From positions 62,001 to 126,000 of the forward strand of contig PSQN01000003.1 of NCBI GenBank assembly GCA_002989075.1: 64,000 nt of DNA, written 5' to 3'. The stretch is from Arthonia radiata. Its lineage: Eukaryota; Ascomycota; Arthoniomycetes; Arthoniales; Arthoniaceae. The notes under the pieces are model-generated. The model saw only the letters and a program-made list of their open reading frames with translations, ran no database searches and was not told where the DNA came from. The translations under genes were made by a program, and so were the position numbers. Positions 171 through 52,713 of the stretch are shown here, one piece after another (positions within the stretch are counted from its first letter, which is position 1; each line of letters begins with the position of its first letter).

Positions 171-1312
171 ATGCCAACACGATTGCTTGACGTCTCTTCC
201 CTAAACTCGCATGGCGGGTTGCGTCTCCACATTGGTAGATTAGGCGAGTCTACGCGTTACGCCGCGCTATCATATTGTTGGGGCGGCTCGAGCATCAGCA
301 CTACTTCAACAATATCGCCGACCATACTGACTTCATTCCAGCTTCATTCTTGCCGGCGACTGTCCTGGACGCTGCGAGGTTGGCTCGTGGACTCGGGCTT
401 GATTATCTTTGGATAGACGCTCTATGCATTATTCAAGACTCGAAGGATCATAAGCGTGCAGAGATCCGCAACATGCGCAACGTCTACAAGAACGCCTTCG
501 TCACCATCGTAGCTGGCTTTTCTAAGTCGGTGTACGACAGCTTTCTGCCACCTGACTTGACTCTTGTATCCGGTGTTGAGTTTCCTGTTGATGTAGGCCG
601 CAGTGATGAGAACGAGAGGTATCTGTGTCTCGAGAACATCGGCCAGTCTGACTACTGGAAGCGAGGTCCGAATACAAGAGCACGGTGTCTGGAAGAACGC
701 TTTTTCTCCCAGAGACTTCTCATCTTCAGCGAGTGGGGCATGATCTGGATGTGCAAGACCATGAGGGTCAACTATGACCCCTGTAGCGAAATCGAAGATG
801 CCGGACGGTACTTCGCGGGTATGACAGCCATCGATGAGACTGCTGAAGAGGTCCTTCACCAGTGGTGTGACATCGTCGCGCATCATACGGGGCGTAATCT
901 GACCACGCCAGAAGACTGCATCAAGGCTGAAACAGATATTGCTGAGGAGTTCTCACACCGATGGCGTCACTTGCTTGGCGACTACCATACGGGACACTGG
1001 TCGAAGCATGTAGAGACGGTGGTTTGGGAGCGGGTGGGTGCGGCCCCTCGTGTCGGCCCATCTTCGAATAATTATCTGATATTAGACCCAAAAGTCAATC
1101 AAACCCCCTTGCAATGCGTGGCGCCGTCGTGGTCATGGATGCAGGGGCACCAAAGCGTCGCGTATACCGTGAGACCTCGTCTGAGCGAAGCACAGCGGAG
1201 AAGCTTCGGTAGCAGTATCGAACGGTTGTACGACGTTTTGAATTTTCAAATGGTGTCGAAGGAGGGTGCCAGTGAGTCTCGTTTGGGCCTTCAGTGCTCA
1301 TTGACTGGATAA
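171..1312 (+). CDS. HET-domain (heterokaryon incompatibility) protein, frame shifted near its start
   Basis: HET proteins act in fungal self/non-self recognition and can trigger cell death after fusion of unlike hyphae. The domain's usual blocks are visible in order: RYAALSYCWGG, then YLWIDALCIIQDS, then a EIRNMRNVYKNA-type helix followed by FVTIVAG, and a closing APSWSWMQG block near the C-terminus. The first block reads in the frame starting at ATG 171, while everything from about position 290 reads in the frame that spans 275-1312. The conserved core therefore crosses one frame change inside the HET domain, close to the GGSS region. No normal intron fits there. It is either a decaying allele or a one-base sequence error. 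Total length would be about 380 residues. The family call is firm; whether the gene works is doubtful. Confidence 0.8.
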
Positions 1313-29444: not shown

Positions 29445-32400
29445 ATGGACCCAGCGACGGCCTTCCAGCTTGCTTGCGGTGCCCCAAAGCTCATCGAGTT
29501 TGGCGTTGCGACCGTCAAAGCTTTCAGCGACATCTATAAAAGCAAGTCTTCCTTAGACTCTGAAAACGAGCGCCTTGACCATGAGACGCGTCTTCTGGAC
29601 ACGACCTGCGCGAGTGTTCTGTCTCGACTAAGCGCGTCTAAGCAAGCACAATCGAGTCCAGAACACGTGCACTTGCGAGGCATCGCTAAAGACTGCGGTC
29701 GACTGTCCCAAGACCTCGTAAACAGACTCGACAAACTCAAACTGAACGGCCCTCAACGCAAGCGTGATGTGCCTGGACAATGGTGGAAGCTCAAGCGCGA
29801 GAAAGGAAAAACCGGACAGACTCAAACACACCTCAAGCGATGTCAGGGTCTATTGGATACTCAGATGCTCGTCCAGATATGGTAGGTGTTTGCATATCTG
29901 GTCCAACGAGGCAGATCGCAGCTGACGTGCCGCAGCCGCGATCTTGACACGGGCAATGTGGAGCAGTCAAAGAAGATACGGGAGGTTGATCTTGGATTGA
30001 TCCAGAGCCTCGACGTCTTCAAGCAGATGAACCAGGATTTTCAGGTAGTCGTGGCAAGTATTACCGTGGATATCCTAGACAAGGTCAAACTTGAAGGAGA
30101 GGTATGCTACAGTCTCTGTCCGGTGAGACTATGATAACAACAGTGTAGGCGACTCGACTTCTTCTCCTGCAGAACAGGAGTGAGGCACACTATCAGAGCT
30201 TTCTACAAAGCCTCGGCTTCCCGACCATGACTGCACGTCAAGAGAGCGTCGACGAACCTTATCCAAAAACATTCAATTAGTTGTTAGAGCCCCCAAAAGA
30301 CAACATAGCTCGCGCCGAGTTTCTTTCGTGGCTTCAAGAAGGACGTGGCATGTTCTGGATTAGCGGTAAACCCGGAAGCGGCAAGTCAACAGTAGGCAGC
30401 TCATCTGCGTTTGCGCAGTACATTTGCTCGATGCCAAGATGCTAACCAAGATCAGCTCATGAAATTCTTGATGGATCACCCGACATTTAGGTACATCAAT
30501 ATGTCAGCATATCGCTATTGCACTTGCTCCCCACTAATTGACTGCATGAGGCTGTGGCGACTAATTCACTTCCCAACCCAGGCATTGATTGAAGCTCTAG
30601 CTGACTCCTTCTGGCAGTGATACCCTTAAAACCTGGGCAGAGCATCGTAAACTTGTCGTTGCGACGTTCTTCTTTTGGCGAATCGGCGATGTACATCAGA
30701 AGTCGATCAATGGTCTGCTCCGTTCGCTCCTGCATCAGATGCTATCGGAGCACCCACCACTTGCTCGAAACCTTGGATCCAAATCGCCACGAACACATCA
30801 AGATTGGACAGTCAACCGTCTAAAGGCCACGATCTTTGCCGTATTTGGTCAGGCTAAAACCGACGGCATTAGGGTGTGTCTGCTTCTTGATGGACTGGAT
30901 GAATTCGAAGGCGATAGCATAGAGCAGGCGTCGCTGATGAACGTACTTCAAGACCTCGTCAAGCATCAGTACGTCAAAGCGATAGTCTCAAGCCGGCCAG
31001 AGACGTTGTTCGTGCAACGTCTTTCTTTGTACAAGAGCTTGCATCTCCAGGATCTTGTCCGCGAGGATATCAAAAATTACGTGAGGGGTAGATTGTTCGA
31101 AGAACCGTTGATGTTGCGTTATAGCGTAAGTCCGTGTTTTTGTTTTCATCCCAGCCAGACCGGTACCTTTTAGAACGAAATTGGCCGCTGGTCTTCATCC
31201 TTGGTTGGCAGCAGTCGTACTTTATTCGATCGCTGACATGTAATACTAAAAATGTGGCCCTAGAAACCTGAATCAGATCCCGTGGCAACTCTCGTTAACG
31301 AGGTCACTAACAAGGCTGATGGTGTTTTCTTATGGGCTCGAATGGCACTACATGATCTCATCAAGGGTATATGGGCTAAGGATACCATGGAAATTCTTGA
31401 GCACCGATTGGAGCATTTGGACAGTACCCTGAACGCGATATTCGAGCAACTTCTGGAACGGGTTGACCCCGTGCATCAAATCAGCGCTGCGAATTACCTC
31501 ATATTTGTGAAGAGCTGGTCCGATAGGGAAGCATACCGAGGAGATCGACTGACAACACTGCACATAGCCTTTGGGTGCCATGAAGGATTAAGTGCGGAAT
31601 TAGAAAGACTGACACTTGCCGGCCAACCTAAATGCGCCGAACGTGAAGCTTTGGAGCAGTGCAAGCGGCGACTTAATGACATCACAACGTCGCTCCGCAG
31701 TCAATGTGCAGGAATGCTTGACGTCCGAAACGGTCGCTCAGGCTCTACATCTCGGCAGGAAGATATACAGCTTCCATACTACGAGTCTTGCGCACGTTTA
31801 GGTCTATCTTCGCTTAGCTGGATATGTTACTATTTCTAGGTGAGTCCTTTCGATATCGCGATATGACTCAATCAGTTCCATCACGCGGAAAGTCGGGGAG
31901 ATTATCTCATGCTGCGGGGAACACTCCTAAGTAGCAGGGTTGATGTGTAAAATCGATATCTGAAAGTGACGGGACGAGTACGGTAACGTCCATGGCAAGG
32001 CCGCAAGGGTGGTCGCAATACATTAGCCACGTTCCGGACAAAATCGCGCCCTCTATCATTCTTGCACTTGCTTTCCTTTGAACGTTAGATAGGGCTGACA
32101 ACAACACCAGAATTCTATGAACGTACGGATCATCCATCGAAGCGCTTGGGAGTTTTTAGACCACAACCCACAAGGCCAAGGTTTCCTTGGAAAGGCATCA
32201 CTGTCATCATCTCAGCTCGCTGCAGTAGTGGTCAGTGCCAAGGAAGGTGGTGCTCGCTGTAGTCTCCATCTTTTTCAAGAGCTTACCATTGGGTTGATAG
32301 AGCAAAGCGAAAGGAGCTCTGGGGTGATCCGCGTCCCTTTTAAGCTGAATCCAGTGCAGCAAATGGCGTTATCGTCTCTCAGTCTGGACTATTCCCAAGC

Positions 32401-37242: not shown

Positions 37243-37710
37243 CTACGCCTCGCGCTCCCCCATCCTCGCCAACCACACCTTCACCCTCTTCAAAACAACC
37301 CCCTCAATCAACGCACACCTCCCACACCGCGCCCAATCCGGCAATGCCCATTTCTCCGCTTTCCCCGATGTACCACCATGTCGTTTACCCTCAGCTGCTT
37401 GTCGATGTTTGAGAAGCACGCGTTGCATCAATCTTCCCTCAGTGCGAAACGCTTCAACGACATTATCAACCTTACGACGATATCTACGACCAACCTCCAA
37501 CAAGGCATAGCGGGCGGTCGTCGCGTCTGGGTTTAGGCTCCTGGTGAACGCGGCGGGGAAGTCGATCGTGCTGTTATGATTTCTTGCACCGTAGATGTTT
37601 GCAGCGTGGAGGGCGGCGGTGAGAATGTCATTGAGGTGGAGGAGGAGGATGGCTTCTTGGAGTTCGAGTCGGAGACGGTGGAAGGGGAAGGGTTGGGGTT
37701 GGTGTGTCAT
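37243..37710 (-). CDS. LPxELQ (F-box-like) family protein, 155 residues
   Basis: ATG 37710 gives MTHQPQPFPFHRLRLELQEA, then ILLLHLNDILTAALHAANIY. This is the same layout as FPFQHLPAELQ (50.8 kb) and PFPLLQLPVELQ (51.3 kb). A central helical region follows, then RLMQRVLLKHRQAAEGKR, LPDWARCGRC and VVLKRVKVWLARMGEREA. An F-box would bind Skp1 and mark proteins for ubiquitination, but this is only suggested by the short motif. The frame is intact. An upstream extension in the same frame (to 37863) looks non-coding. Confidence 0.5.
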   Translation of the reverse strand: MTHQPQPFPFHRLRLELQEAILLLHLNDILTAALHAANIYGARNHNSTIDFPAAFTRSLNPDATTARYALLEVGRRYRRKVDNVVEAFRTEGRLMQRVLLKHRQAAEGKRHGGTSGKAEKWALPDWARCGRCALIEGVVLKRVKVWLARMGEREA

Positions 37711-38191
37711 ATCTCCCAGTTGAGTGTGTGTAGTCTTGTGTGGAAGTTCGAACTCGCTTTTTGTGTGGTTAGGACTGTAGAGATGACGAGGTCGTGATAT
37801 TATTTTGACGAGCGCGCGCCGGGGATGATAGGCTGTCCTGTACGCCGTGTGTATATTGAGCATTGGGCCCCATCAGCGTCCCATAACATCACGTACGAAC
37901 CGCTATGGATCCTCATGCGTGTGTTCGGCAACTCTACAGTCTGCGCGGGTTTCAGCCAAAAAAAAGATGTGAATGGTACCTGACGAGCATACTGCTCGCA
38001 TATTAAGAACGAGCCCAAGTAATATACCGGCATCACCATCTAGACGTCCAGTAGAGGTAGATAGATAGTAATACATTAATGGGATATGACGCAGCAGGAT
38101 CCCAAGTCGTGTCTCGTTCCCGTCATCCATCCAGACTTTCGAAACGCCAGCGCTGCACACCGGATTAGTTTCCATGTAATAAAGACTGCCA
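37711..38191. other. Intergenic stretch, no gene seen
   Basis: Promoter side of the 37.2 kb gene and terminator side of INP1, both on the minus strand. No motif was recognised. Confidence 0.4.
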
Positions 38192-41121: not shown

Positions 41122-41917
41122 ATGCATCACCCAGCAATCACAGCTTTGTACGCTTCACATACTGACGATCTAGCGCACGGCGATTCCACGATTCTTCGTT
41201 CCGAGTGGCTGAAGATTGAATGTCGAATGCTTGTCCACCAGAGTTTCGATATTTGGTGTGGTAACACACGTTTATACCATGGCAGCTGGCACCCTAACTC
41301 ATCCGACGTTCCCACTCATCACGATCGAGTCTGGCGTAAGCAATGTGTCCGGAAATTGCCCACTTGTCGGCGCTTACAGAACCCAGATATCACTGGCTAT
41401 GAGCCTTATCGTCACCTCAAAGCTTATATACACCCTGCGGATCAATCTGCTTCGGTCGTCAAAGTTGTCGGGGCTGAGAACGTCGCTGTCAGGGAAGAAG
41501 CAATCTTCTCCGTGGTACCCCAGCGCTCTTCTGATGGCAGTGCTTCGTGTCATAGCAAGACCGCAGCGACAGGTCGTGGTATCGCTCTGACTGGTGAAGA
41601 GGAGATCCGGTATTATGAAATCGAAATGAGTGGCAGCGAAGGCAGTGAAGCCATACACGTCACCTTGCACAAAGGCGATGAAAGAAAGACGATGGCATTT
41701 ACGGTAACACGACCGTATCGCCATACTGATCCTTGGCATTGGGAGATGATTGGCTTTGTGCAGAGAGGGTGTAGTATCCGAGATGTGAGCGACAAACCAC
41801 AGTGGTACCCACGTATCTCGACTGATGCTGATGGGGCTTTAGTGCAGCATGGCCGTCTTTCTCAGGGCCATGTTCTATCTACGCCAACAGTATCCGTACA
41901 TTCTCGGTGGTGCATGA
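41122..41917 (+). CDS. Array 2, unit A: unknown tandem family, 228 residues
   Basis: Three exons, 41122-41335, 41387-41784 and 41843-41917, join in phases 1 and 0. Exon 1 carries WLKIECRMLVHQSFDIWCGN and RLYHGSWHPN. Exon 2 starts after a tryptophan codon with ITGYEP and ends WHWEMIGFVQRGCSIRD just before GTGAGC. Exon 3 is short and hydrophobic: CSMAVFLRAMFYLRQQ. No signal peptide and no known domain were recognised. The reading frame is also open for some 80 bases upstream of the ATG, so a further 5' exon is possible. This is the first of the head-to-tail copies. Confidence 0.55.
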
Positions 41918-42530
41918 AGTTACTATGCCTGGCGAATGCCTGTTACTCTACGTGACCGAGCGACTTATGTTAGAGCAGGCAAGCAATCAAATCACGAATG
42001 ACAACAAAACACTAACACGGGCTTCCACATTGGAGCCTCCGGGAAGTTGGACGATCTATTCTGGAGTCTCCATTATCACCTTCCGATCATTGGAGACCAC
42101 GACTGCAGGGCCTTCCTGGCAAAGGTCGGACAAACCGGCCTCCAATATCTGAGGCCTCCAACCTTGATTCGGTAGTTTCTGTCTATATTGCTGCCCATCC
42201 CGATCATGGCGTCCTTCAACACCTCTGAATAGGAAGGCCGTCCGCATGGCGCCGTCAATAGTTTCCCAATGAGGATATTGTGGCTTGTCAGACCATCCTT
42301 CGAACTTACGCGCTGCCAAACAATGAACACGTCTTGGAGACCATAATTATGGAGCCACGTACTCTTCATCTTGCGGCAGACATCAAACTCAAAGGGACAA
42401 GTTCGTTTGCCATAATCGTGGGCACCGGAAGTTTGGCACCAGCAGAAGACCCATAACGCTACCAATCCTTCGCACGTCTCCTGTCAACGACTTAATTACT
42501 CTCGTATAATAACCGCATTCAAGATACGGA

Positions 42531-43374
42531 ATGCCTAGACGCCGTAACACCCATAGCGTCAATGGATGGAATATAAACAGCGTTGCACTGCGTACGATTC
42601 CAATCAGGATTGAATGTCGGGTCGCTCGTCACAAAAACTTTGATATCTTCAGCGAAAATCTACGCTTGTTCCACGGCAGCTGGCAGCCCAATCCATTTCC
42701 GAATTTCTCAACCTTTCACAATAAGACTTGGGGTATGTGCTCGCTCCACGCTGCATCCATGGTATTCTAACACTCGAGGCACTGATTTCTATTAGACATC
42801 GATGGCTATCAACCGCCCGACAGTATCCTGGCTTTCCCTCAACATCCGCATGAAGAAGAGATCGACCAGGGAGGGTATCGCTCGGCCGCTTTGTTACGCT
42901 ATGACAGAAGCGACAGTCTGGAAAGCCGTCAAATTGTCAATGAACATATATTCCTCGCCATGTCTCCAGCTTCTTGGGACCGCGTAGGAACCGTAGTCGC
43001 GCAGACATTCTCCAACGCCAATTGGAGGTCGAACAACAGTCAACCGGAGCCGGTCTACGATATCACAATGCCCGACGAGAAGTCCATCAAACTCACGAGG
43101 CATTTGTTGCAGGGATACGAGGAGCGGGGCAGTATGCTCTTCTGGATTCATAGACCCCACAGCTTTGACCCGTGGTATTGGGAGCTTCGCGGATCTGTGA
43201 CCGAGGGCAATAACGTCAGGGATGTAAGTGTCATGCGTCTGTATCAGTCTAGTCGTGCCTCGAGGGTTAACAGCCGCGCAGTGTAGTCTTGCGGTCTTCA
43301 TGCGATTCCTGTTTGTTTTGCATGAGCATCATCCGTATACATTCACGGATTTGACCAGTCTCATGCGCGAATAG
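42531..43374 (+). CDS. Array 2, unit B: unknown tandem family, 240 residues
   Basis: Exons 42531-42732, 42796-43223 and 43282-43374 join in phases 1 and 0. Exon 1 reads IPIRIECRVARHKNFDIF, then RLFHGSWQPNPF, and ends at a tryptophan. Exon 2 opens DIDGYQPPDSILAF and closes WYWELRGSVTEGNNVRD. Exon 3 reads CSLAVFMRFLFVLHEH and ends with TAG. All three junctions have GTATG/GTAAG donors. The copy is intact by my reading. The middle of exon 2 (FLAMSPASWDRVGTVV) has no clear counterpart in unit A. Confidence 0.6.
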
Positions 43375-43421
43375 CGCACGTGCAGTCTCTGCTGCGCTGG
43401 TGAGTTATCGTGAAGGGGATA

Positions 43422-43730
43422 TTATGTCAGTTTTGCACTGCATGAGATGAAGCCAGCGTAGATCTGACTTCGAACAAGCATTGCGAACCTGACGCAACCG
43501 GCGCAGGTGTCAACATCGTCGATGTGGAGATTTCTTGGAACATGCACATGCAACGGATCGATATCAGAACATGACATCTCGACACTCTTTTGAACTCCTC
43601 GACACCTCATGATTGCTAAACAGCATTCACTCTGCTTAGAACGCTCAAGGGATCTCGTGGCACAGACTTGCCCACAGCGTTTGCACCAGACTGGCAGCTG
43701 CTGTTGGGCAAAGTGACACATGCAATATTC
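43422..43730 (-). CDS. Possible cysteine-rich small protein, antisense between array 2 units
   Basis: On the minus strand a frame includes CVEYCMCHF, then VWCKRCGQVCATR, LAIMRCRGVQKS, and near its end VDTCAGCVRFAML. Fungi have many short secreted or cytosolic proteins with an early C...C.C, a middle CxxC and a late CxxC of this kind, but no named family is claimed. The first in-frame ATG codes for the M of YCMCHF, and the frame is open upstream. It lies between units B and C of the plus-strand array, so chance is possible. Confidence 0.35.
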   Translation of the reverse strand, partial: EYCMCHFAQQQLPVWCKRCGQVCATRSLERSKQSECCLAIMRCRGVQKSVEMSCSDIDPLHVHVPRNLHIDDVDTCAGCVRFAMLVRSQIYAGFISCSAKLT

Positions 43731-43901
43731 CACACAAACAGGCCTCAAGGACACTTGTTAGTTTGAGCTTTCTTGCAAAACCCGACTATTCCCTTCCTGC
43801 GCCGAAGCCGACCGTCGAATGCAGGCATATGCCCAACGATCGTTCCGTTGTCTATTACCTCTCGTCGCTCAATAGCCAGACCCCGTCATTGCGACCAACA
43901 C

Positions 43902-44545
43902 ATGATAGCCAGCTGTGAGATACACATCAAGATCGTATGCTGTGCTGCAACCCATAAGATCTTTGAAACCTCGGTGAGCGACACGTGCATCTTTCACGGG
44001 ACCTGGCACTCGCACAATATGGAGGGCTTCCACACCCAGAATGGCAAGATCTGGTGTATGAACACGATCACCCGCATGACTCTCTTGCGCGCCCAGACTA
44101 GTCATCACCGGCTACTATCTCCGCAGCGGAAAGTTCGTCGCTTAACTTTCTCCTCGTGATGCTACCGATTTGACTGGCCAAATCCATGGCGCGGCGGCTT
44201 TCGCTAAGGCGAGAGCATTACCAGTTGACAGCGTTGATCATGCTACATTCAAGCTAGTGGAGCAGAATCAGCAACCCGTGCATTCGCCGCGAGAGCTCAC
44301 CATGTTGACCAGCCCACCCATCGACAACAACCCACAGCAGATGAAAACCTATTCTGTTGACATGGCCAGAGAAGACGTGATCGGGATCACACACCGGCGG
44401 CGGTTCGGGCACACGCATGGCGCACAAATGTCTTTCTACGCCACTCAGCCATACGAGACGATTTCACCCCACTTAGAAGTGAGTGGCGAAATAAAAAAGA
44501 GCAACAATGTGCGCGATGTGAGTGTCGTCTTGTTGTGACAGACTA
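43902..44545 (+). pseudogene. Array 2, unit C: copy with an in-frame TAA
   Basis: Exon 1 from ATG 43902 reads CEIHIKIVCCAATHKIFET and CIFHGTWHSHN and ends after a tryptophan in phase 1, as in the other units. Exon 2 opens ITGYYLRSGKFVA, where TAA 44143-44145 interrupts it, and then continues in the same frame (TDLTGQIHGAAAF ... LEVSGEIKKSNNVRD) to a GTGAGT donor at about 44519. The exon 3 counterpart reads IAALLRLW and then stops. CAA-to-TAA would explain the interruption. The copy is probably dead, or its exon 2 is spliced differently. Confidence 0.5.
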
Positions 44546-45297
44546 GTGCGAGAGATTACCGCTAACACGCCTTTGGTGCAGCATTGCAGCGCTCTTGAGA
44601 CTGTGGTAACACATTCACAAGAGACACTCATATCTGTTCGTAGACGTGAGCGGATTGCACGATTGAGCGATCTGGGCGTAACTTGTTACAAGTATCTCGC
44701 GCCATTGTCATTCAGTCCTATAAAGGGAGACACGCACAGCTTTGTGCAGAAATGATCACTGGTCCCAGTCAAGACAAGTGGAGGCACTGAGGTTTTCCGT
44801 TGGCAGATAAATCACACAGAAGCTCAAGTAACCATCATCTCCGACTAATGAGGAATGATGTTCAGAGCTCATCAACGACACTACTATTACGAGCCGCTGT
44901 AAGCGCATGAGACTTAGCGCAACGGCAATGTGTGCGCAAAGACCTTGGTTGGTCCGTTCACACGGCTCGTGAGGACTGCCCAACAAGCTCGCATAGTAAA
45001 GTCGCATCCGCCCCATAAGCTGACAGTGACCAACCTCTATAGTCCATAAGATAATGTCAGACAGAATGCGGGGGCCTGAGGCAGAGCATCCGCCCGCAGA
45101 ATGCCTGATCCCGCGAAAGTTGAGGAAAGGACAACTATTCGCTATGCACAGATCTTTGCGGCGTCATCTTCTCCGCGGATCTGGTGAAATGAACACGTGG
45201 GCAGATCGCGGAAACCTTGTCGAACACCTGGCCAAGACAGGAAAAACTTGTTCACTGCTCGGCAGATCTTCCTTTGTCGTCGTTTTGTTGGTGCAAA

Positions 45298-46202
45298 ATG
45301 GCGGGACTGTGGAATAGCAATGAGCTCGCCACGTGCGATGTACCTCTGAAGATCAATTACGACGCGGAACATAAGACTCTTGAATTCTATCACGGGAACA
45401 CCCTGCTTTCTCGTGGCGGATGGTGTCCTAACTCGTCACCCCGTAGCTCATCGATAGTCCACCCAATGCTACGCACAGATCACTGGGGTAATTCCACCCC
45501 TGATCACTAAGATCAGCTTTCGAGTTTCATTTTGGGCACTAACCGTATCGTCCCCAATAGCGATTCGAAACAGCAATGACGATTCTGCATCCGAGGTTCG
45601 GGCCTCATTACATCTACACAAAGAATCTGCAGAAGTCCAGGACGCGGATGGAAAGCGCGTTCTGGACCTCGACAATAAGGACGGGACTGAAGCGATCTTT
45701 GGAGACTCGAACCCCCGCACGTATGATCTACTCATGCTCTCTCCAGCAATACTTCTGCACGAGAAGGGAAAAGACGAAGAGGAACGGATGCAGTTCACTA
45801 TGAAGCCGCCTGCCTGGCTAGGGCACAAGCACATCGAGATCACTGGCACTGTGAAACAAGGGCATAACGTGAGAGATGTAAGTGGCGGCTTTGACGCATT
45901 AATCAGTGTGACCTGCGTGCACGATCTAGACATCTTTTCGACTGGACACCCGGATGATCATTGCGCCTCGGTCTCCTCACAGCATCTCATCCGCAATTCC
46001 ATCCCTTTGGTTACATTTCTTTTTACATCTACTGACGACACCCTAGTGCGCGCTTGCTGTCATGCTTCGTGCTTTCTTTTATACCCGCGAACACTTCCAT
46101 TGGCTTAGGTCGACTGACTCGGCTCCTCCAGGGTTCGGAGAGGAAGGCGGGGATGGAGATCAAGCGATTTATCACTTACCATCGTTTCTGAGAGGGCATT
46201 GA
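45298..46202 (+). CDS. Array 2, unit D: unknown tandem family, 220 residues
   Basis: Exons 45298-45487, 45561-45877 and 46047-46202 join in phases 1 and 0 without any break. Exon 1: MAGLWNSNELATCDVPLKIN, then LEFYHGNTLLSRGGWCPNSS. Exon 2: WAIRNSNDDSASEV, LLMLSPAILLHEKGKDE and the constant end IEITGTVKQGHNVRD. Exon 3: CALAVMLRAFFYTREHFHWL, then an acidic-glycine tail. It is most like the unit at 47992. This is one of the two best intact copies and a good query for any search. Confidence 0.62.
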
Positions 46203-46779
46203 GTATGTTTCTAACCCACGATAAAGTTGCTCAAGAGTCAAGGGAGGCCCATTCCTGTGCCAACGCGCGGAGCCGATATTTTTTCCTCCTTCCTTCCAGT
46301 GTCAACTGTTTTCACAGCTTGCGCAACGTTATTGCGAAACTTGATCACTGGCCGATCGAACGTAAGCATCGTCACTCAAGGCTCGCAAACACGTCCTTCT
46401 GGCCATGTGCAATAGTAAAGATATGAAACGGTTCTGATGACATCCGAGGAGACCACTGATTCCGAGCAGCTTGTCGACACAGTTCGTTCTGGTGTTGATT
46501 CTTTGATCGACCTACAGACAATATTGTCTGGATAAAGTCCGTGGTATTTGTCATGAATGCCTTCAAACTCGTCGCAAAACGCTCGTGCAATCATCTCAAG
46601 TTGGTAAGGCTTCGGAAATCATTGAGGCCAGGTGTGTGGATCTCGAGACGACTTTTCATTAGACGAGATCTTGTTCGCGCGGGCCGGCTAGCCTTCGAAG
46701 GTCAGTACTCTTTCACTCACTTTTTGCAAACACCTCACCAGAAGTTACAAAGTCTCCTCGAGAACCCGAACGTGGCGGG

Positions 46780-47360
46780 ACTCTTGAACGCCGACCTAGT
46801 TGCCACGCAAAATATTCCGGTCATGGTCGTCTACAGCGCGGTGCGATTCAAAAGCTTTTAAATATACTACGTAGATCCACAGATGCACAGAGACATTTTG
46901 CTGTACCACGGGAAATGGCACTTCAGAAACTCTGCCTCCTCTAAAAGCTCTTGGGGCAAATTAAACGATCTCGAGCCTCAGCGTTTCGTTCTGAGGCGTT
47001 AGAATTCGTATACTTGAAGGCCCTCAAACTAATTACATCGACGCCAGCGATCGAAGACCACGTTTCTAACCCGCGCGTCGATACTCACGCGATTGTTGAG
47101 CCACAAAGAAACTTCGCTCATGTCCAAGAGGCTGACAACAAGTTTGTCATGAACTTGCATCCTCGCTCAACAGAGTATAGGCCACGACATGCGCAACGCA
47201 GGCTCGACTTGAACATGCCTAGTGAGCATATCATCAACGTGGAAGAAGCTGCCCGAGCCGACCTTGGCGTGATGAGCTTTCAAATAAGATGATATCCGAC
47301 AAGCTGGTGGCATCTGGAGATCAGGAGGTCTGTGAACGCTAATTTCAATTTCGAATTGTG
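46780..47360 (+). pseudogene. Array 2, unit E: decayed copy
   Basis: The pieces NIPVMVVYSAVRF, MHRDILLYHGKWHF and WWHLEIRRSV align with the exon 1 and exon 2 end motifs of the other units (VPVKIRY, LYHGSW and WHWEMIGFV). They lie in different frames with stops between them. The NVRD end is lost. The spacing fits one unit of the array. Confidence 0.4.
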
Positions 47361-47991
47361 AGTCGGTTTTTCCTTCGGGTGTATTTTCACCAAAACCATC
47401 GCTTGCAGCATCAACCGGACTACTCCGTATATGCGTGCCAGACCAGCAGCTAATACCAAATACATACAGGTTGTCCTCGCGGTTGCATTACACGCTTATT
47501 TCCACGCTCGCGATGGTACCGAAGGAGCAACAGACAATGGAGAAGGAGAGGATGAAACAAATGAGGAGTAGCTGCTGCATGATCCGCAATCAGGGTTTCA
47601 TGTGTCGTCGAATCGATCTTGAAAGGCAAGCATGGCAAACTTGTGAGCAATTATCGTAGGAAGGACCCATCTCTTATCATTGCACATGACCGGGCTGAAA
47701 CCCTCTTCTCTTTCCACATTTAACGATCCTAAAGCTTGCGCAATTTACACCCGAACCGTGACCGGTCGCGTGTTTGACTGCACCCATCGTCTAGCACGGC
47801 TCGCAAATACATCCGGGTCAGGGTTCTAAATGACAGTTGTTCAACTCCAATTGCATACTTCGTAAACAACACTGTGGCGACATTTGAACAAGTCACTACG
47901 GCTGCGTGGACATAGGTTTAGGGCTTAACAGAATAAACTTACCAGCATCGAACGGCGCGATTGTCACAGGCAACCAAAAAAAAACAGCGTT

Positions 47992-48814
47992 ATGGCCAAC
48001 CCGTGGAGCGACGACATGGTTGCTATGCAAGATGTACCCGTTAAAATTCGGTATGGTGCAATGCACCAGCACTTCGACGTCTATCACAACGTTTACGAGC
48101 CCGCCGAACTGTACCACGGCAAGCGCAACTTTTCTGCCCTACCTGACGAACACAAGTGGTGTACGCGACCCTACTCCTCACCTCCTCGTAGTGTAGCTGA
48201 CGGAAGTGTCCTAGCAATCACAGGTAGTAACAGCGTCAGTCAATACGACGACATACACGTGAAAGCCCACGCAACAGCCCACGCCGCCGAAGTCCATGAA
48301 GGCGACGCAAAGCCATTCATGAAGCTGACTGACCGGGATGCCTTCATCATCCCGCGTCCGGGCGAGCGGCAGGCTCAGCTCGAGCTGAGGTGGCAGATGA
48401 CCAAGATCCGCGTCGCAGAGAAGAAAAAGGGATCAGCGGGCGTCATGATGTTTGACGTGGAGCAGCCGCATCCGGCCAAGAACGAGTGGCACCTGGTGAT
48501 CACCGGGACGGTCAAGCCGGGGTATAACGTTCGTGATGTGAGTTCATTGCTACACGTGCACTGTCGTTCCTACTCCCTACAGATGTTTTGACTACCACAT
48601 CTACCATCAGACCACCCCTATCCTTGCCTTGGAGCAAAATAATTGAACACAAACATAGATTGCGATTGCCGCCACGTTGCGCGCCTTCTTTCACGTCCGC
48701 GGTTTGACTTATATTAACACAAACGCACCGAACAGCTCAGGCGGTGCAGATGGCAAGCAAAGTTGGGAGAGCGACGATGGAAGGCACCTGCTGCCGTCAG
48801 GACTCTTAGACTGA
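47992..48814 (+). CDS. Array 2, unit F: unknown tandem family, 212 residues
   Basis: Exons 47992-48160, 48224-48537 and 48659-48814 join in phases 1 and 0. Exon 1: MANPWSDDMVAMQDVPVKIR, then FDVYHNVYEPAELYHGKRNF. Exon 2 includes VSQYDDIHVKAHATAH and AQLELRWQMTKIRVAEKK and ends WHLVITGTVKPGYNVRD. Exon 3: IAIAATLRAFFHVRGLTYIN, then a polar tail to TGA 48814. The first intron is 63 bases, a multiple of three and stop-free, so retention would give a 233-residue form. Intact. Confidence 0.62.
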
Positions 48815-49095
48815 TTGCTCGAGCGAGATCACATATCTCGCACGATTGCTAGGAGATAAGTGCGAAGAACGCTCATTATTTCTGACAGCTTGCCGTCTCT
48901 GCGGCCAATAATTACACTTTTGAGCTTTATTCAATGGTGTTTTGAATACACCGCTGGCAAAGGACACACGTGAGAACATCTGTAACTCTCAACATATATC
49001 GTCTGGCCAAACCGATTCGTAGCGCAAGTGTCTCCGAGAGTTCCAAGTAGCACGAACGGCGAAGTCCTGTAGGCTCCGACACTCATGGAACAGTA

Positions 49096-49952
49096 GTGAC
49101 CGGGCCAAGAACACGTTATCACAGGAACGAGTGCAAAGCAACTTTCCACTCGGTCATCGAGATCTTCGATATGCGGTGCGAAGAGTCCGTTCAACTCTAC
49201 GACGGCCTCCGCATGCCCCATTGCAGGCGGGACGAAGATCATTCGTGCACGTGTTTCCACGTCTGCTTCCTACTACTCTTTTGCTGACGCTTAGCTCGCA
49301 GCCTTTACACCGCTCGCCCCGGATCATGCAGGAAGAGCTCGTCCCAGCAAGCACAGAGATAGTCGCAAACTTTTCGTCATCGCCGAACCCACAAAGCATG
49401 AAGCTGAGGGTTTCCAAGAAGCCAACGTCCTCCATGAGTCGTATGCGCCGTTTCTGGAAGTGTACGAGGACGCTGTGATCGCTGTCACGCGGCAATATAA
49501 TCTTGAATGGCGTGAAAAAGAGCGTCAAATCCACATGACCGAAATTAGCAACGGCAAGTCCAACAGCAACGATAAAATGGTGTTCCACGTGAGCCAGCTT
49601 GGCGTTACCAGGCCAGATCACATTATGATCACCGGGACCGTGAAGACTGGTCACAACGTGCGAGATGTGAGTCAGTTGTTATCTTCGACCCTTCCCACAT
49701 TACTCCGGTGTCCAATTCGCTTGTGCACGTTTGCATTACAGCCAAACGTTTCGCGCTTCACCTGCCTCAGCCACAAACATCAGCTGATGGAACACACGAC
49801 AGGTCGCGATTGCCGTCGCTCTCCGCGCGTTTCTGAACCTGCGCCACAGACGCTTCAGACCGCTGAAACATCCCTTGGGCAACGAGTGTAACGAATTTGA
49901 TGAGGCTTATCAGCACCGGGTATTACATGGAAGGCCTCATGTAGAGCCATAA
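49096..49952 (+). CDS. Array 2, unit G: unknown tandem family
   Basis: Exon 1 (no ATG found; frame open from before 49096) reads NECKATFHSVIEIFDMRCEE and VQLYDGL. Exon 2 (about 49302-49666) reads AVIAVTRQYNLEWREKERQI and MVFHVSQLGVTRPDHIMIT, ending GTVKTGHNVRD at a GTGAGT donor. Exon 3 (49803-49952) reads VAIAVALRAFLNLRHRRFRP and ends with TAA. The first intron's phase does not close with the obvious donor at 49245, so exon 1 may be slightly decayed. The rest is clean. Confidence 0.5.
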
Positions 49953-50129
49953 GACATCTCTTCAAAGACGTCGACCATTTCTGAACATGGAACCCGGACC
50001 CCGCACAAGCACGTAATTTTCCTCACTAGGGAGGTATTCTTACAATAGTCACGTATATCTCGACTTGACGCGCAAATAGCTTACGACATGTCAATTTTCC
50101 ATCCACATCAATACGTTATCGCATCACCA

Positions 50130-50350
50130 GTCCTCAGTGTTCACCATCGCAAAGCCATACTTCCCCAAGCAGAAATCCCACTTGGACGTGACCTGGCAGA
50201 GCCTGCGATCCATGCAACGTGATCACCGCCCAATAAAACGGCCGCGGCCGCCCTTCTTTCCACGCAGCCGCATGACCTCCAGATGTGCCGCCTTGGCCAC
50301 GTGCATGAGCGCCTTACTGCTGTCCGCTCTGTTCTCGACATGTACAGATC
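50130..50350 (+). pseudogene. Array 2, 3' remnant of an eighth copy
   Basis: VFTIAKPYFPKQKSHLDVTW followed by QSLRSMQRD aligns with AFTVTRPYRHTDPWHWEM and the IRD end of unit A. A little downstream, ATCMSALLLSALFSTCTD resembles the hydrophobic third exon (CSMAVFLRAMFYLRQQ). No exon 1 counterpart was seen. It marks the right edge of the array. Confidence 0.35.
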
Positions 50351-50754: not shown

Positions 50755-51225
50755 TCACAGAAGTTCCACACTCGCAATCCACGCCAGCACCTGCTCCATC
50801 AAAACTCGCATAGAATACCGTCGGCGCTCATAGCTTGCATACGTGCCTCCGCAAGGCTGAAACAGATGTTTCTCCAATTCATCCTCCAGTCGCTGCAAAC
50901 ACGGTCTCAGCGCCACTTGCACGAAAGGTTTAACGATCGGTATGGTTGCAACCAGGTTCACGACAGCGCGCCTGAACAGCCATGGGTAGGTGGTGAGAGT
51001 GTCGAGCTCCGCGAAGACAGCGCAAATGTAGTGTATCATGATCATTTGTTGCAGTTCTGCTGGTAGGTGCTGGAACGGGAATGGTTGAGTATGTTTGCTT
51101 GTCGGGTTTGGGAGAGGACAGCTGTGATGAGTTTGTGAAGGGGAAGTGGAGCGGGTGTGGAGATGAGTGGTTTGCGAGGCGTGCAGACTGTGCAATGCGT
51201 TGGATCCAGCGACATTGTAAGGCAA
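50755..51225 (-). CDS. LPxELQ (F-box-like) family protein
   Basis: The frame reads TQPFPFQHLPAELQQMIMIH, YICAVFAELDTLTTYPWLFR, VQVALRPCLQRLEDELEKHL and ends RVLMEQVLAWIASVELL. There is no ATG before the LPAELQ block in this frame, so a short upstream exon is likely missing from the model. It is followed (on its own strand, upstream) by a larger paral​ogue at 51343-52251. The motif order matches that protein and the one at 37.2 kb. A role in ubiquitin ligases is only a guess from the F-box-like start. Confidence 0.5.
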   Translation of the reverse strand: MPYNVAGSNALHSLHASQTTHLHTRSTSPSQTHHSCPLPNPTSKHTQPFPFQHLPAELQQMIMIHYICAVFAELDTLTTYPWLFRRAVVNLVATIPIVKPFVQVALRPCLQRLEDELEKHLFQPCGGTYASYERRRYSMRVLMEQVLAWIASVELL

Positions 51226-51342: not shown

Positions 51343-52251
51343 CTAGAGGCCGCCGTTCCCACGCGAGCGCTCAAATCGTTTCTCGAAAGTCCCACGGCCC
51401 AAAAGCTCGTGACTCCACCATTGACCCCGTCCCTCCGCCCAAGCCTCCAGCTCCTCAAGCCTCTGCGCCAAGGGTGGAACCTGCCGACCGTGGCAAGAAC
51501 CATGAAACCACGATTCATCACGATGCGGCTCCGCTCGTGCGTGCCAGACGGTGATGTGCCGCTGCACAGCGGTCCGCAGCACCGAGGTGAACAGAGGCGA
51601 TGCTCGTAATATTATTCTAACAGCACCGATGTAAGACCTCAGGCATTGGTCGAAGAAGTAGGTGCTACTAAGCGCGTCATCGGAAAAGTTGCTATATAGC
51701 ACATCGTTGAGATGGTGCGTGAGAATCTTTTCCTGAAGCTCCACGGGAAGCTGCAAGAGTGGAAAAGGCTTGTAAGTTGCGGCTACAGGAGCCAACGGCC
51801 ATATTTTAGCGGCTCCTGGTCGACCAGGCCTTTGGGTGCTAGTAAGTTGTGAGGGCGGCAGTCCTGCCGGATAGTCGTGCGACGCAACTCCATTGTGTGG
51901 CAACGTAGTCGTGCGAAGATGAACCTTCTGTGCGCTGTTGATCACAGAAGCTTTCTTATGATCACTGGAGTCCGTGTGATGTTTCGTAGATACGACAGGT
52001 GAAGCACACTTGCTGCGAGTCTGTGAACGGCGAGGGGCTGATGTCGACACACGCTGTGATTGCGACCGTTCACGTTCGTACCGATCAAAGTCATACTCAC
52101 GTTGGAACCGCGAGCTTGTGCTGTATCGTAGTCGATACGTGTCCAGGTATCTTCCACGAGGGAAGCGATCATACCCTCGATCATATGGCGCTCGTTCGCG
52201 GTGGTGACTCGGACTACGGTAGCACGTTTGATTTGCGTTTGCGCGTGGCAT
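51343..52251 (-). CDS. LPxELQ (F-box-like) family protein with basic N-terminus, 302 residues
   Basis: ATG 52251 gives MPRANANQTCYRSPSHH followed by a long region rich in R, Y, S and D (RGYDRFPRGRYLDTYRLRYS), then a polar linker, then YKPFPLLQLPVELQEKILTH, HLNDVLYSNFSDD, ILRASPLFTSVLRTAVQRH and an end with RLEELEAWAEGRGQWW. The arginine-rich first third resembles RNA-binding disordered regions. The last 190 residues are the shared family part. The frame is intact. It forms a tandem pair with 50755-51225. Confidence 0.55.
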   Translation of the reverse strand: MPRANANQTCYRSPSHHRERAPYDRGYDRFPRGRYLDTYRLRYSTSSRFQREYDFDRYERERSQSQRVSTSAPRRSQTRSKCASPVVSTKHHTDSSDHKKASVINSAQKVHLRTTTLPHNGVASHDYPAGLPPSQLTSTQRPGRPGAAKIWPLAPVAATYKPFPLLQLPVELQEKILTHHLNDVLYSNFSDDALSSTYFFDQCLRSYIGAVRIILRASPLFTSVLRTAVQRHITVWHARAEPHRDESWFHGSCHGRQVPPLAQRLEELEAWAEGRGQWWSHELLGRGTFEKRFERSRGNGGL

Positions 52252-52713
52252 CGTGAGTTCCCGCAAGGACGATTGTTGTAGCTCTGATGTAGTGATTACT
52301 GAGAGCAGGATCACAGCTTTGCCCAATGTGAGGTTAGTCAAGACCGTAAAAAATGTCGATGACCTTTAGCAGCTGTTAAATGGTACGGAAGGCATTGCGA
52401 TGCCTCCAGAATGTGGGTGATGAAGATGTTTAGCAGAAGCCACTCGATGCACCTAGAACATGTCAGCTGAGACGGAGACAGTATGCGATCATAGTGACGA
52501 GTTGTCTGATGTGACTTCACTGCACAAGCATCATCGCCCTTGCCCTCGGCGGCGATCATCTCTATAAAGGTAAGCACGAAGGCCGTGATGTCAATGCCCC
52601 ATCATTGAGATTCCACGACTAGTAACACGACTAGTAAAACATGCGCTGTACACACTACCTGCCGTTTTCATAACTCCAAGCACCGCCCTCATGCAACCCT
52701 AGCCCAACATGAT
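52252..52713. other. Intergenic stretch, no gene seen
   Basis: Promoter side of the 51.3 kb gene and terminator side of the dihydrolipoyl dehydrogenase gene. A direct repeat ACACGACTAGTA-like pair lies near 52617-52637. No gene motif. Confidence 0.4.

What the first reader, a model, noticed from the sequence alone, without database searches (positions are those of the whole stretch)
41122..50350. Tandem array of an unrecognised gene family with fixed intron positions
Seven head-to-tail copies and a remnant occupy 9 kb. Four (A, B, D, F) read without a break when spliced (228, 240, 220 and 212 residues). All readable copies share an exon 1 with (V/I)P(V/L/I)(K/R)I and (L/F)(Y/F)HG(S/T)W-type motifs, a phase-1 intron right after a tryptophan, an exon 2 ending in G-x-V-xx-G-x-NVRD with a phase-0 donor, and a short hydrophobic exon 3 of the form (C/V/I)xxAV(L/F)xRA(F/M)FY. 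I know of no named family with this signature. Seen: the motifs and phases. Inferred: a lineage-specific, expanding gene family.
Basis: partly seen in the sequence, partly recalled or inferred. Interest (0 to 1): 0.88.

Follow-up and report, generated by a model that had tools for sequence, protein, structure and literature searches.

The report
Old tandem family of orphan fungal genes
A stretch of what looks like a fungal genome holds seven side-by-side, long-diverged copies of a small three-exon gene, four still intact and three decaying, that matched no known protein family in the libraries searched; arrays of this kind are common in fungi, so it is real but not startling.

Summary
Seven head-to-tail units (A-G) lie at 41122-49952. 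A, B, D and F splice into open frames of 228, 240, 220 and 212 residues with the same two intron positions. All six pairs among these four score 37.7-116 bits, against at most 27.3 for shuffles. Their profile recovers pieces of C, E and G and nothing credible elsewhere in the window. The eighth "remnant" is not supported (2.2 bits); the printed motifs are looser than stated.

No match was found in Pfam, in solved structures by sequence (best E 0.14) or fold (best E 0.65, poor model), or in the prokaryote and viral contigs scanned. No fungal proteome was available, so "lineage-specific" is untested. "Expanding" is not supported: third codon positions are near saturation and three of seven copies are broken.

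Best reading: an old array under birth-and-death evolution, encoding a probably non-secreted protein with a beta meander (confident only in unit A) and a hydrophobic exon-3 segment. My own LURP-one/Tubby-like lead failed a profile test whose controls worked. Biochemical function remains a guess.

The parts
41122..41917 (+). Unit A, intact: exons 41122-41335, 41387-41784, 41843-41917; 228 aa
   Evidence: Spliced translation without a break; 116 bits to B
42531..43374 (+). Unit B, intact: exons 42531-42732, 42796-43223, 43282-43374; 240 aa
   Evidence: Spliced translation
43902..44581 (+). Unit C, broken: exon 1 43902-44055 and exon 2 up to 44517 readable, one stop in exon 2, exon 3 not recognisable
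45298..46202 (+). Unit D, intact: exons 45298-45487, 45561-45877, 46047-46202; 220 aa
   Evidence: Spliced translation; 74.7 bits to F
46772..47571 (+). Unit E, broken: no ATG at the place matching D's start, two in-frame stops, first donor lost, NVRD end of exon 2 decayed
47992..48814 (+). Unit F, intact: exons 47992-48160, 48224-48537, 48659-48814; 212 aa
   Evidence: Spliced translation
49126..49952 (+). Unit G, degenerate: exon 1 without recognisable start, Trp or donor; exon 2 (49334-49666) and exon 3 (49803-49952) readable
50137..50195 (+).
   Evidence: 2.2 bits alone; absent from the whole-window list, where unrelated places score up to 6.4 bits

Best explanation
An old tandem array of a real protein-coding gene, made by repeated duplication of a unit of about 1.1-1.5 kb and shaped by birth-and-death evolution: at least four copies (A, B, D, F) have been kept open by selection while C, E and G decay. 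Shown: homology, shared exon structure, intact versus broken frames, and relatedness that follows position (A, B, C against D, E, F, G). Inferred: unequal crossing-over as the cause; splicing, since there are no transcripts; and that the product is a small intracellular protein whose antiparallel beta sheet (exon 2) packs against the short hydrophobic segment of exon 3, working as a binding or adaptor module whose partners differ between copies. That last step is a guess, which I would put at about 0.2 on its own.
For: Spliced frames and junctions. Scores above all shuffles for 6 of 6 pairs. Held-out C, E and G recovered. Exon-2 tree separates A, B, C from D, E, F, G with support 0.871. With substitutions only, at an assumed 0.7 per site, neutral copies gain 7.5-8.8 stops on average and 0, 0, 0 and 0.1% of 2000 simulated A, B, D and F frames stay open. 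No N-terminal signal-like or membrane-spanning stretch by hydropathy. Model of unit A: four strands at residues 163-212, block pLDDT 78-90 over residues 161-220. The exon-3 segment is not amphipathic: 45-91% of shuffles reach its helical moment in 6 of 6 units scored, which fits a buried segment.
Against: No transcript data. The codon-position test gave no support: codon-shuffled controls show nearly the same pattern, because the alignment is made on protein. Whole models are poor (mean pLDDT 46.1 and 50.1), and exon 3 was in neither, so the packing is unseen. D with E has support of only 0.070. A branch-point-like motif was found in 6 of 8 introns of the intact copies, with no chance control.
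Confidence: 0.55

Rival explanations
1. A divergent branch of a known fungal domain family that single-sequence Pfam scans miss and a deep fungal alignment would reveal.
For: Only five to twelve rows could be aligned, all from this window, so the searches were shallow; fast-diverging families often lose their Pfam match (general knowledge).
Against: 0 Pfam families in 8 of 8 scans up to E 10 (the filters drop most hits above about 0.1). No significant solved structure.
Confidence: 0.35
2. A member of the LURP-one-related (LOR, PF04525) / Tubby C-terminal-like group, which also has beta strands followed by a hydrophobic C-terminal helix.
For: Likeness that I recalled: strands, then Gly-x-(x)-Asp and a hydrophobic C-terminal helix.
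Against: hhalign probability 0.2%; at least 7 of 60 column shuffles score higher. The same method gives 98.0% for plant against prokaryote LOR and 98.7% for D+F against A+B, but 0.1-0.7% for either half of the family against either half of LOR. No Tubby-like structure in the 50 Foldseek rows shown, though the model is poor.
Confidence: 0.06
3. A family of secreted proteins acting outside the fungus.
For: Tandem, fast-diverging, domain-less genes with few introns are often secreted in fungi (general knowledge).
Against: Greatest mean hydropathy of 12 residues near the N-terminus is 0.40-0.92, without a signal-like core, in 4 of 4 intact proteins; few cysteines (5, 2, 3 and 1). No signal-peptide program was run.
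Confidence: 0.07
4. The whole array is a dead relic: no copy makes a working protein.
For: Three of seven copies are broken; no transcript data.
Against: Four frames free of stops at near-saturated divergence, with good donors kept.
Confidence: 0.08

Closest known systems
Tandem birth-and-death gene families of fungi without known domain (general kind)
   Same: Head-to-tail copies, shared introns, intact next to decaying members, neighbours more alike
   Different: No signal peptide seen, unlike many such families; the family matched nothing in the libraries searched
LURP-one-related family (PF04525), e.g. At5g01750 (1zxu)
   Same: Roughly 200 residues, strands followed by a hydrophobic C-terminal segment (my comparison)
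   Different: Profile comparison negative with working positive controls

Membership tests
Tandem birth-and-death gene family | Several homologous copies head to tail | tested here: met
Tandem birth-and-death gene family | Intact and disabled copies side by side | tested here: met
   A, B, D, F open; C, E, G broken
Tandem birth-and-death gene family | Gain and loss of copies between species | not testable with these tools
   No fungal genomes at hand; no genome is held for this window
LURP-one-related (PF04525) / Tubby C-terminal-like | Sequence profile match | tested here: not met
   No Pfam match; hhalign 0.2% with positive controls at 98.0% and 98.7%
LURP-one-related (PF04525) / Tubby C-terminal-like | 12-stranded barrel around a central C-terminal helix (recalled) | tested here: inconclusive
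   Poor models, exon 3 not included
Secreted fungal protein family | N-terminal signal peptide | tested here: not met
   Crude hydropathy only, 4 of 4 intact proteins

The most novel reading that the evidence does not exclude
A protein family and fold not yet described: an all-beta intracellular recognition module of filamentous fungi, diversified in tandem. It may serve in telling self from non-self, since HET-domain and NACHT-domain genes lie in the same 64 kb, although such genes are common in these fungi.
Probability: 0.1. Interest if true: 0.6.

Novelty: new member of a known kind. Interest (0 to 1): 0.3.

Why it matters
It adds a well-delimited orphan family with four intact paralogues, a fixed gene structure and three natural broken copies. 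That is a tidy set for asking how a domain-less fungal gene survives and diversifies. It would matter more if the fold were new or the proteins served in recognition, which is unproven.

Tried and rejected
Codon-position mismatch as a sign of coding constraint: rejected, because codon-shuffled controls give nearly the same pattern. LOR/Tubby-like: rejected by profile comparison. Fold search: 270 matches up to E 10, none at or below 0.001, 50 rows shown, mostly small beta-sheet proteins; the model is poor, so this is no evidence of a new fold. Model of F: mean pLDDT 46.1, not searched. Alignments A2 and A4 put some exon pieces in the wrong place and were not folded. In one search the acceptor of intron 1 of C and the donor of intron 2 of E were mis-set, so those rows were dropped; the label 'stopfree3n' there means only a length divisible by three. 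Six paper searches were seen as listings with the starts of abstracts only; no paper was opened; no listed title described this family, but words cannot find an unnamed family. PHROGs, NCBIfam and PADLOC were not searched.

Full report
Setting. The window looks like the genome of a filamentous ascomycete. It carries HET, DNA primase small subunit, Bles03, formamidase and Inp1 domains, a NACHT domain and GatB, and a dihydrolipoyl dehydrogenase whose best solved match is 1jeh (from yeast, as I recall). The placement in ascomycetes is my inference; no genome is held for the window. Rfam and ARAGORN found nothing.

The observation. Reading the three + frames and locating exon ends gives seven units, A to G. 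A, B, D and F splice with GT-AG introns into 228, 240, 220 and 212 residues (B corrected). Intron 1 follows a Trp codon in phase 1, and intron 2 is phase 0 after Arg-Asp. C has one stop in exon 2 and no recognisable exon 3; E has no ATG at the matching start, two in-frame stops and no first donor; G lacks a recognisable start, Trp and first donor.

Is it more than chance? Yes. The six pairs among A, B, D and F score 116, 58.9, 40.4, 56.6, 37.7 and 74.7 bits, while the best of 500 shuffles each is 23.5-27.3. A profile of the four, run over six-frame pieces of at least 15 residues of the whole window, recovers pieces of all three held-out copies, and its best hit outside the array has E 0.76. 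The exon-2 donor class follows Arg-Asp in 6 of 7 units and is a few bases off in E, against a rate of 0.00108 per base. Two weaknesses: the printed motifs are exact in only 3, 2, 4 and 1 of 7 units, and the eighth remnant is not supported.

Age and fate. BLAST identities are about 21-32%. Third-position mismatches are 0.62-0.73, close to the 0.69-0.71 of codon-shuffled controls, so the copies are old. The lower mismatch at positions 1 and 2 appears in those controls as well, so I do not use it. In a substitution-only simulation at an assumed 0.7 changes per site, open frames are lost nearly always: 0, 0, 0 and 0.1% of 2000 stay open for A, B, D and F. So those four were most likely kept by selection, and C, E and G, with few lesions, most likely died late. 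An exon-2 tree joins A, B and C (0.871; A with B 0.897) and F with G (0.945), but leaves D with E open (0.070). That suits serial local duplication. 'Expanding' is not supported.

What the protein is like. No signal-like or membrane stretch by hydropathy in 4 of 4 (no dedicated program). The structure predictor takes only contiguous window translations; in A and F intron 1 is in frame and stop-free, so exons 1 and 2 could be folded together without exon 3. F gave mean pLDDT 46.1. A gave 50.1, but residues 161-220 reached block values of 78-90 with strands 163-172, 175-184, 187-196 and 208-212. Foldseek found nothing at E 0.001 or better (best 0.65). The exon-3 segment is hydrophobic and not amphipathic, which I read as a buried segment closing the sheet; that is inference.

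Relatives. Pfam: 0 of 8 proteins or pieces matched. PDB sequences: two insignificant matches, E 0.14 and 0.73. Prokaryote contigs: 62 stretches matched a peptide pattern, none confirmed (query exon 2 of D). Viral contigs: none (query exon 2 of F). No fungal collection was available, so the real relatives, if any, lie where I could not look.

A lead that failed. The order 'strands, then Gly-x-Asp-like turn and hydrophobic C-terminal segment' recalled LURP-one-related proteins. I built a LOR alignment from 1zxu, a recalled consensus and two plasmid genes. The family scored 0.2%, no better than column-shuffled LOR, while plant against prokaryote LOR scored 98.0% and D+F against A+B 98.7%. So it is not LOR by sequence; a shared fold is untested.

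Verdict. A real, old, partly decaying tandem gene family, unmatched in the libraries at hand. The mechanism of its origin and upkeep is reasonably clear; its biochemical role is not. As a kind of thing it is ordinary in fungal genomes.

Noticed in passing
37243-37863 (-), 50755-51225 (-), 51343-52341 (-): Three minus-strand ORFs on either side of the array share a motif like PFPxxxLPxELQExILxHHLNDVL (5e-7 and 4e-7 in single comparisons) and match no Pfam family: perhaps a second dispersed family, loosely F-box-like (my impression).
   Followed up: partly
275-1312 (+) and 30739-31173 (+): A HET-domain ORF and a NACHT-domain ORF in the same window as the array.
   Followed up: no
41336-41386 and 48161-48223: Intron 1 of A and of F is a multiple of three and stop-free, so intron retention would give a longer open product there, unlike B, where the retained intron holds stops.
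   Followed up: no
46367-46396 and 47785-47814: A 30-base stretch, 80% alike, downstream of units D and E: possibly a trace of the duplicated spacer, possibly chance.
   Followed up: no
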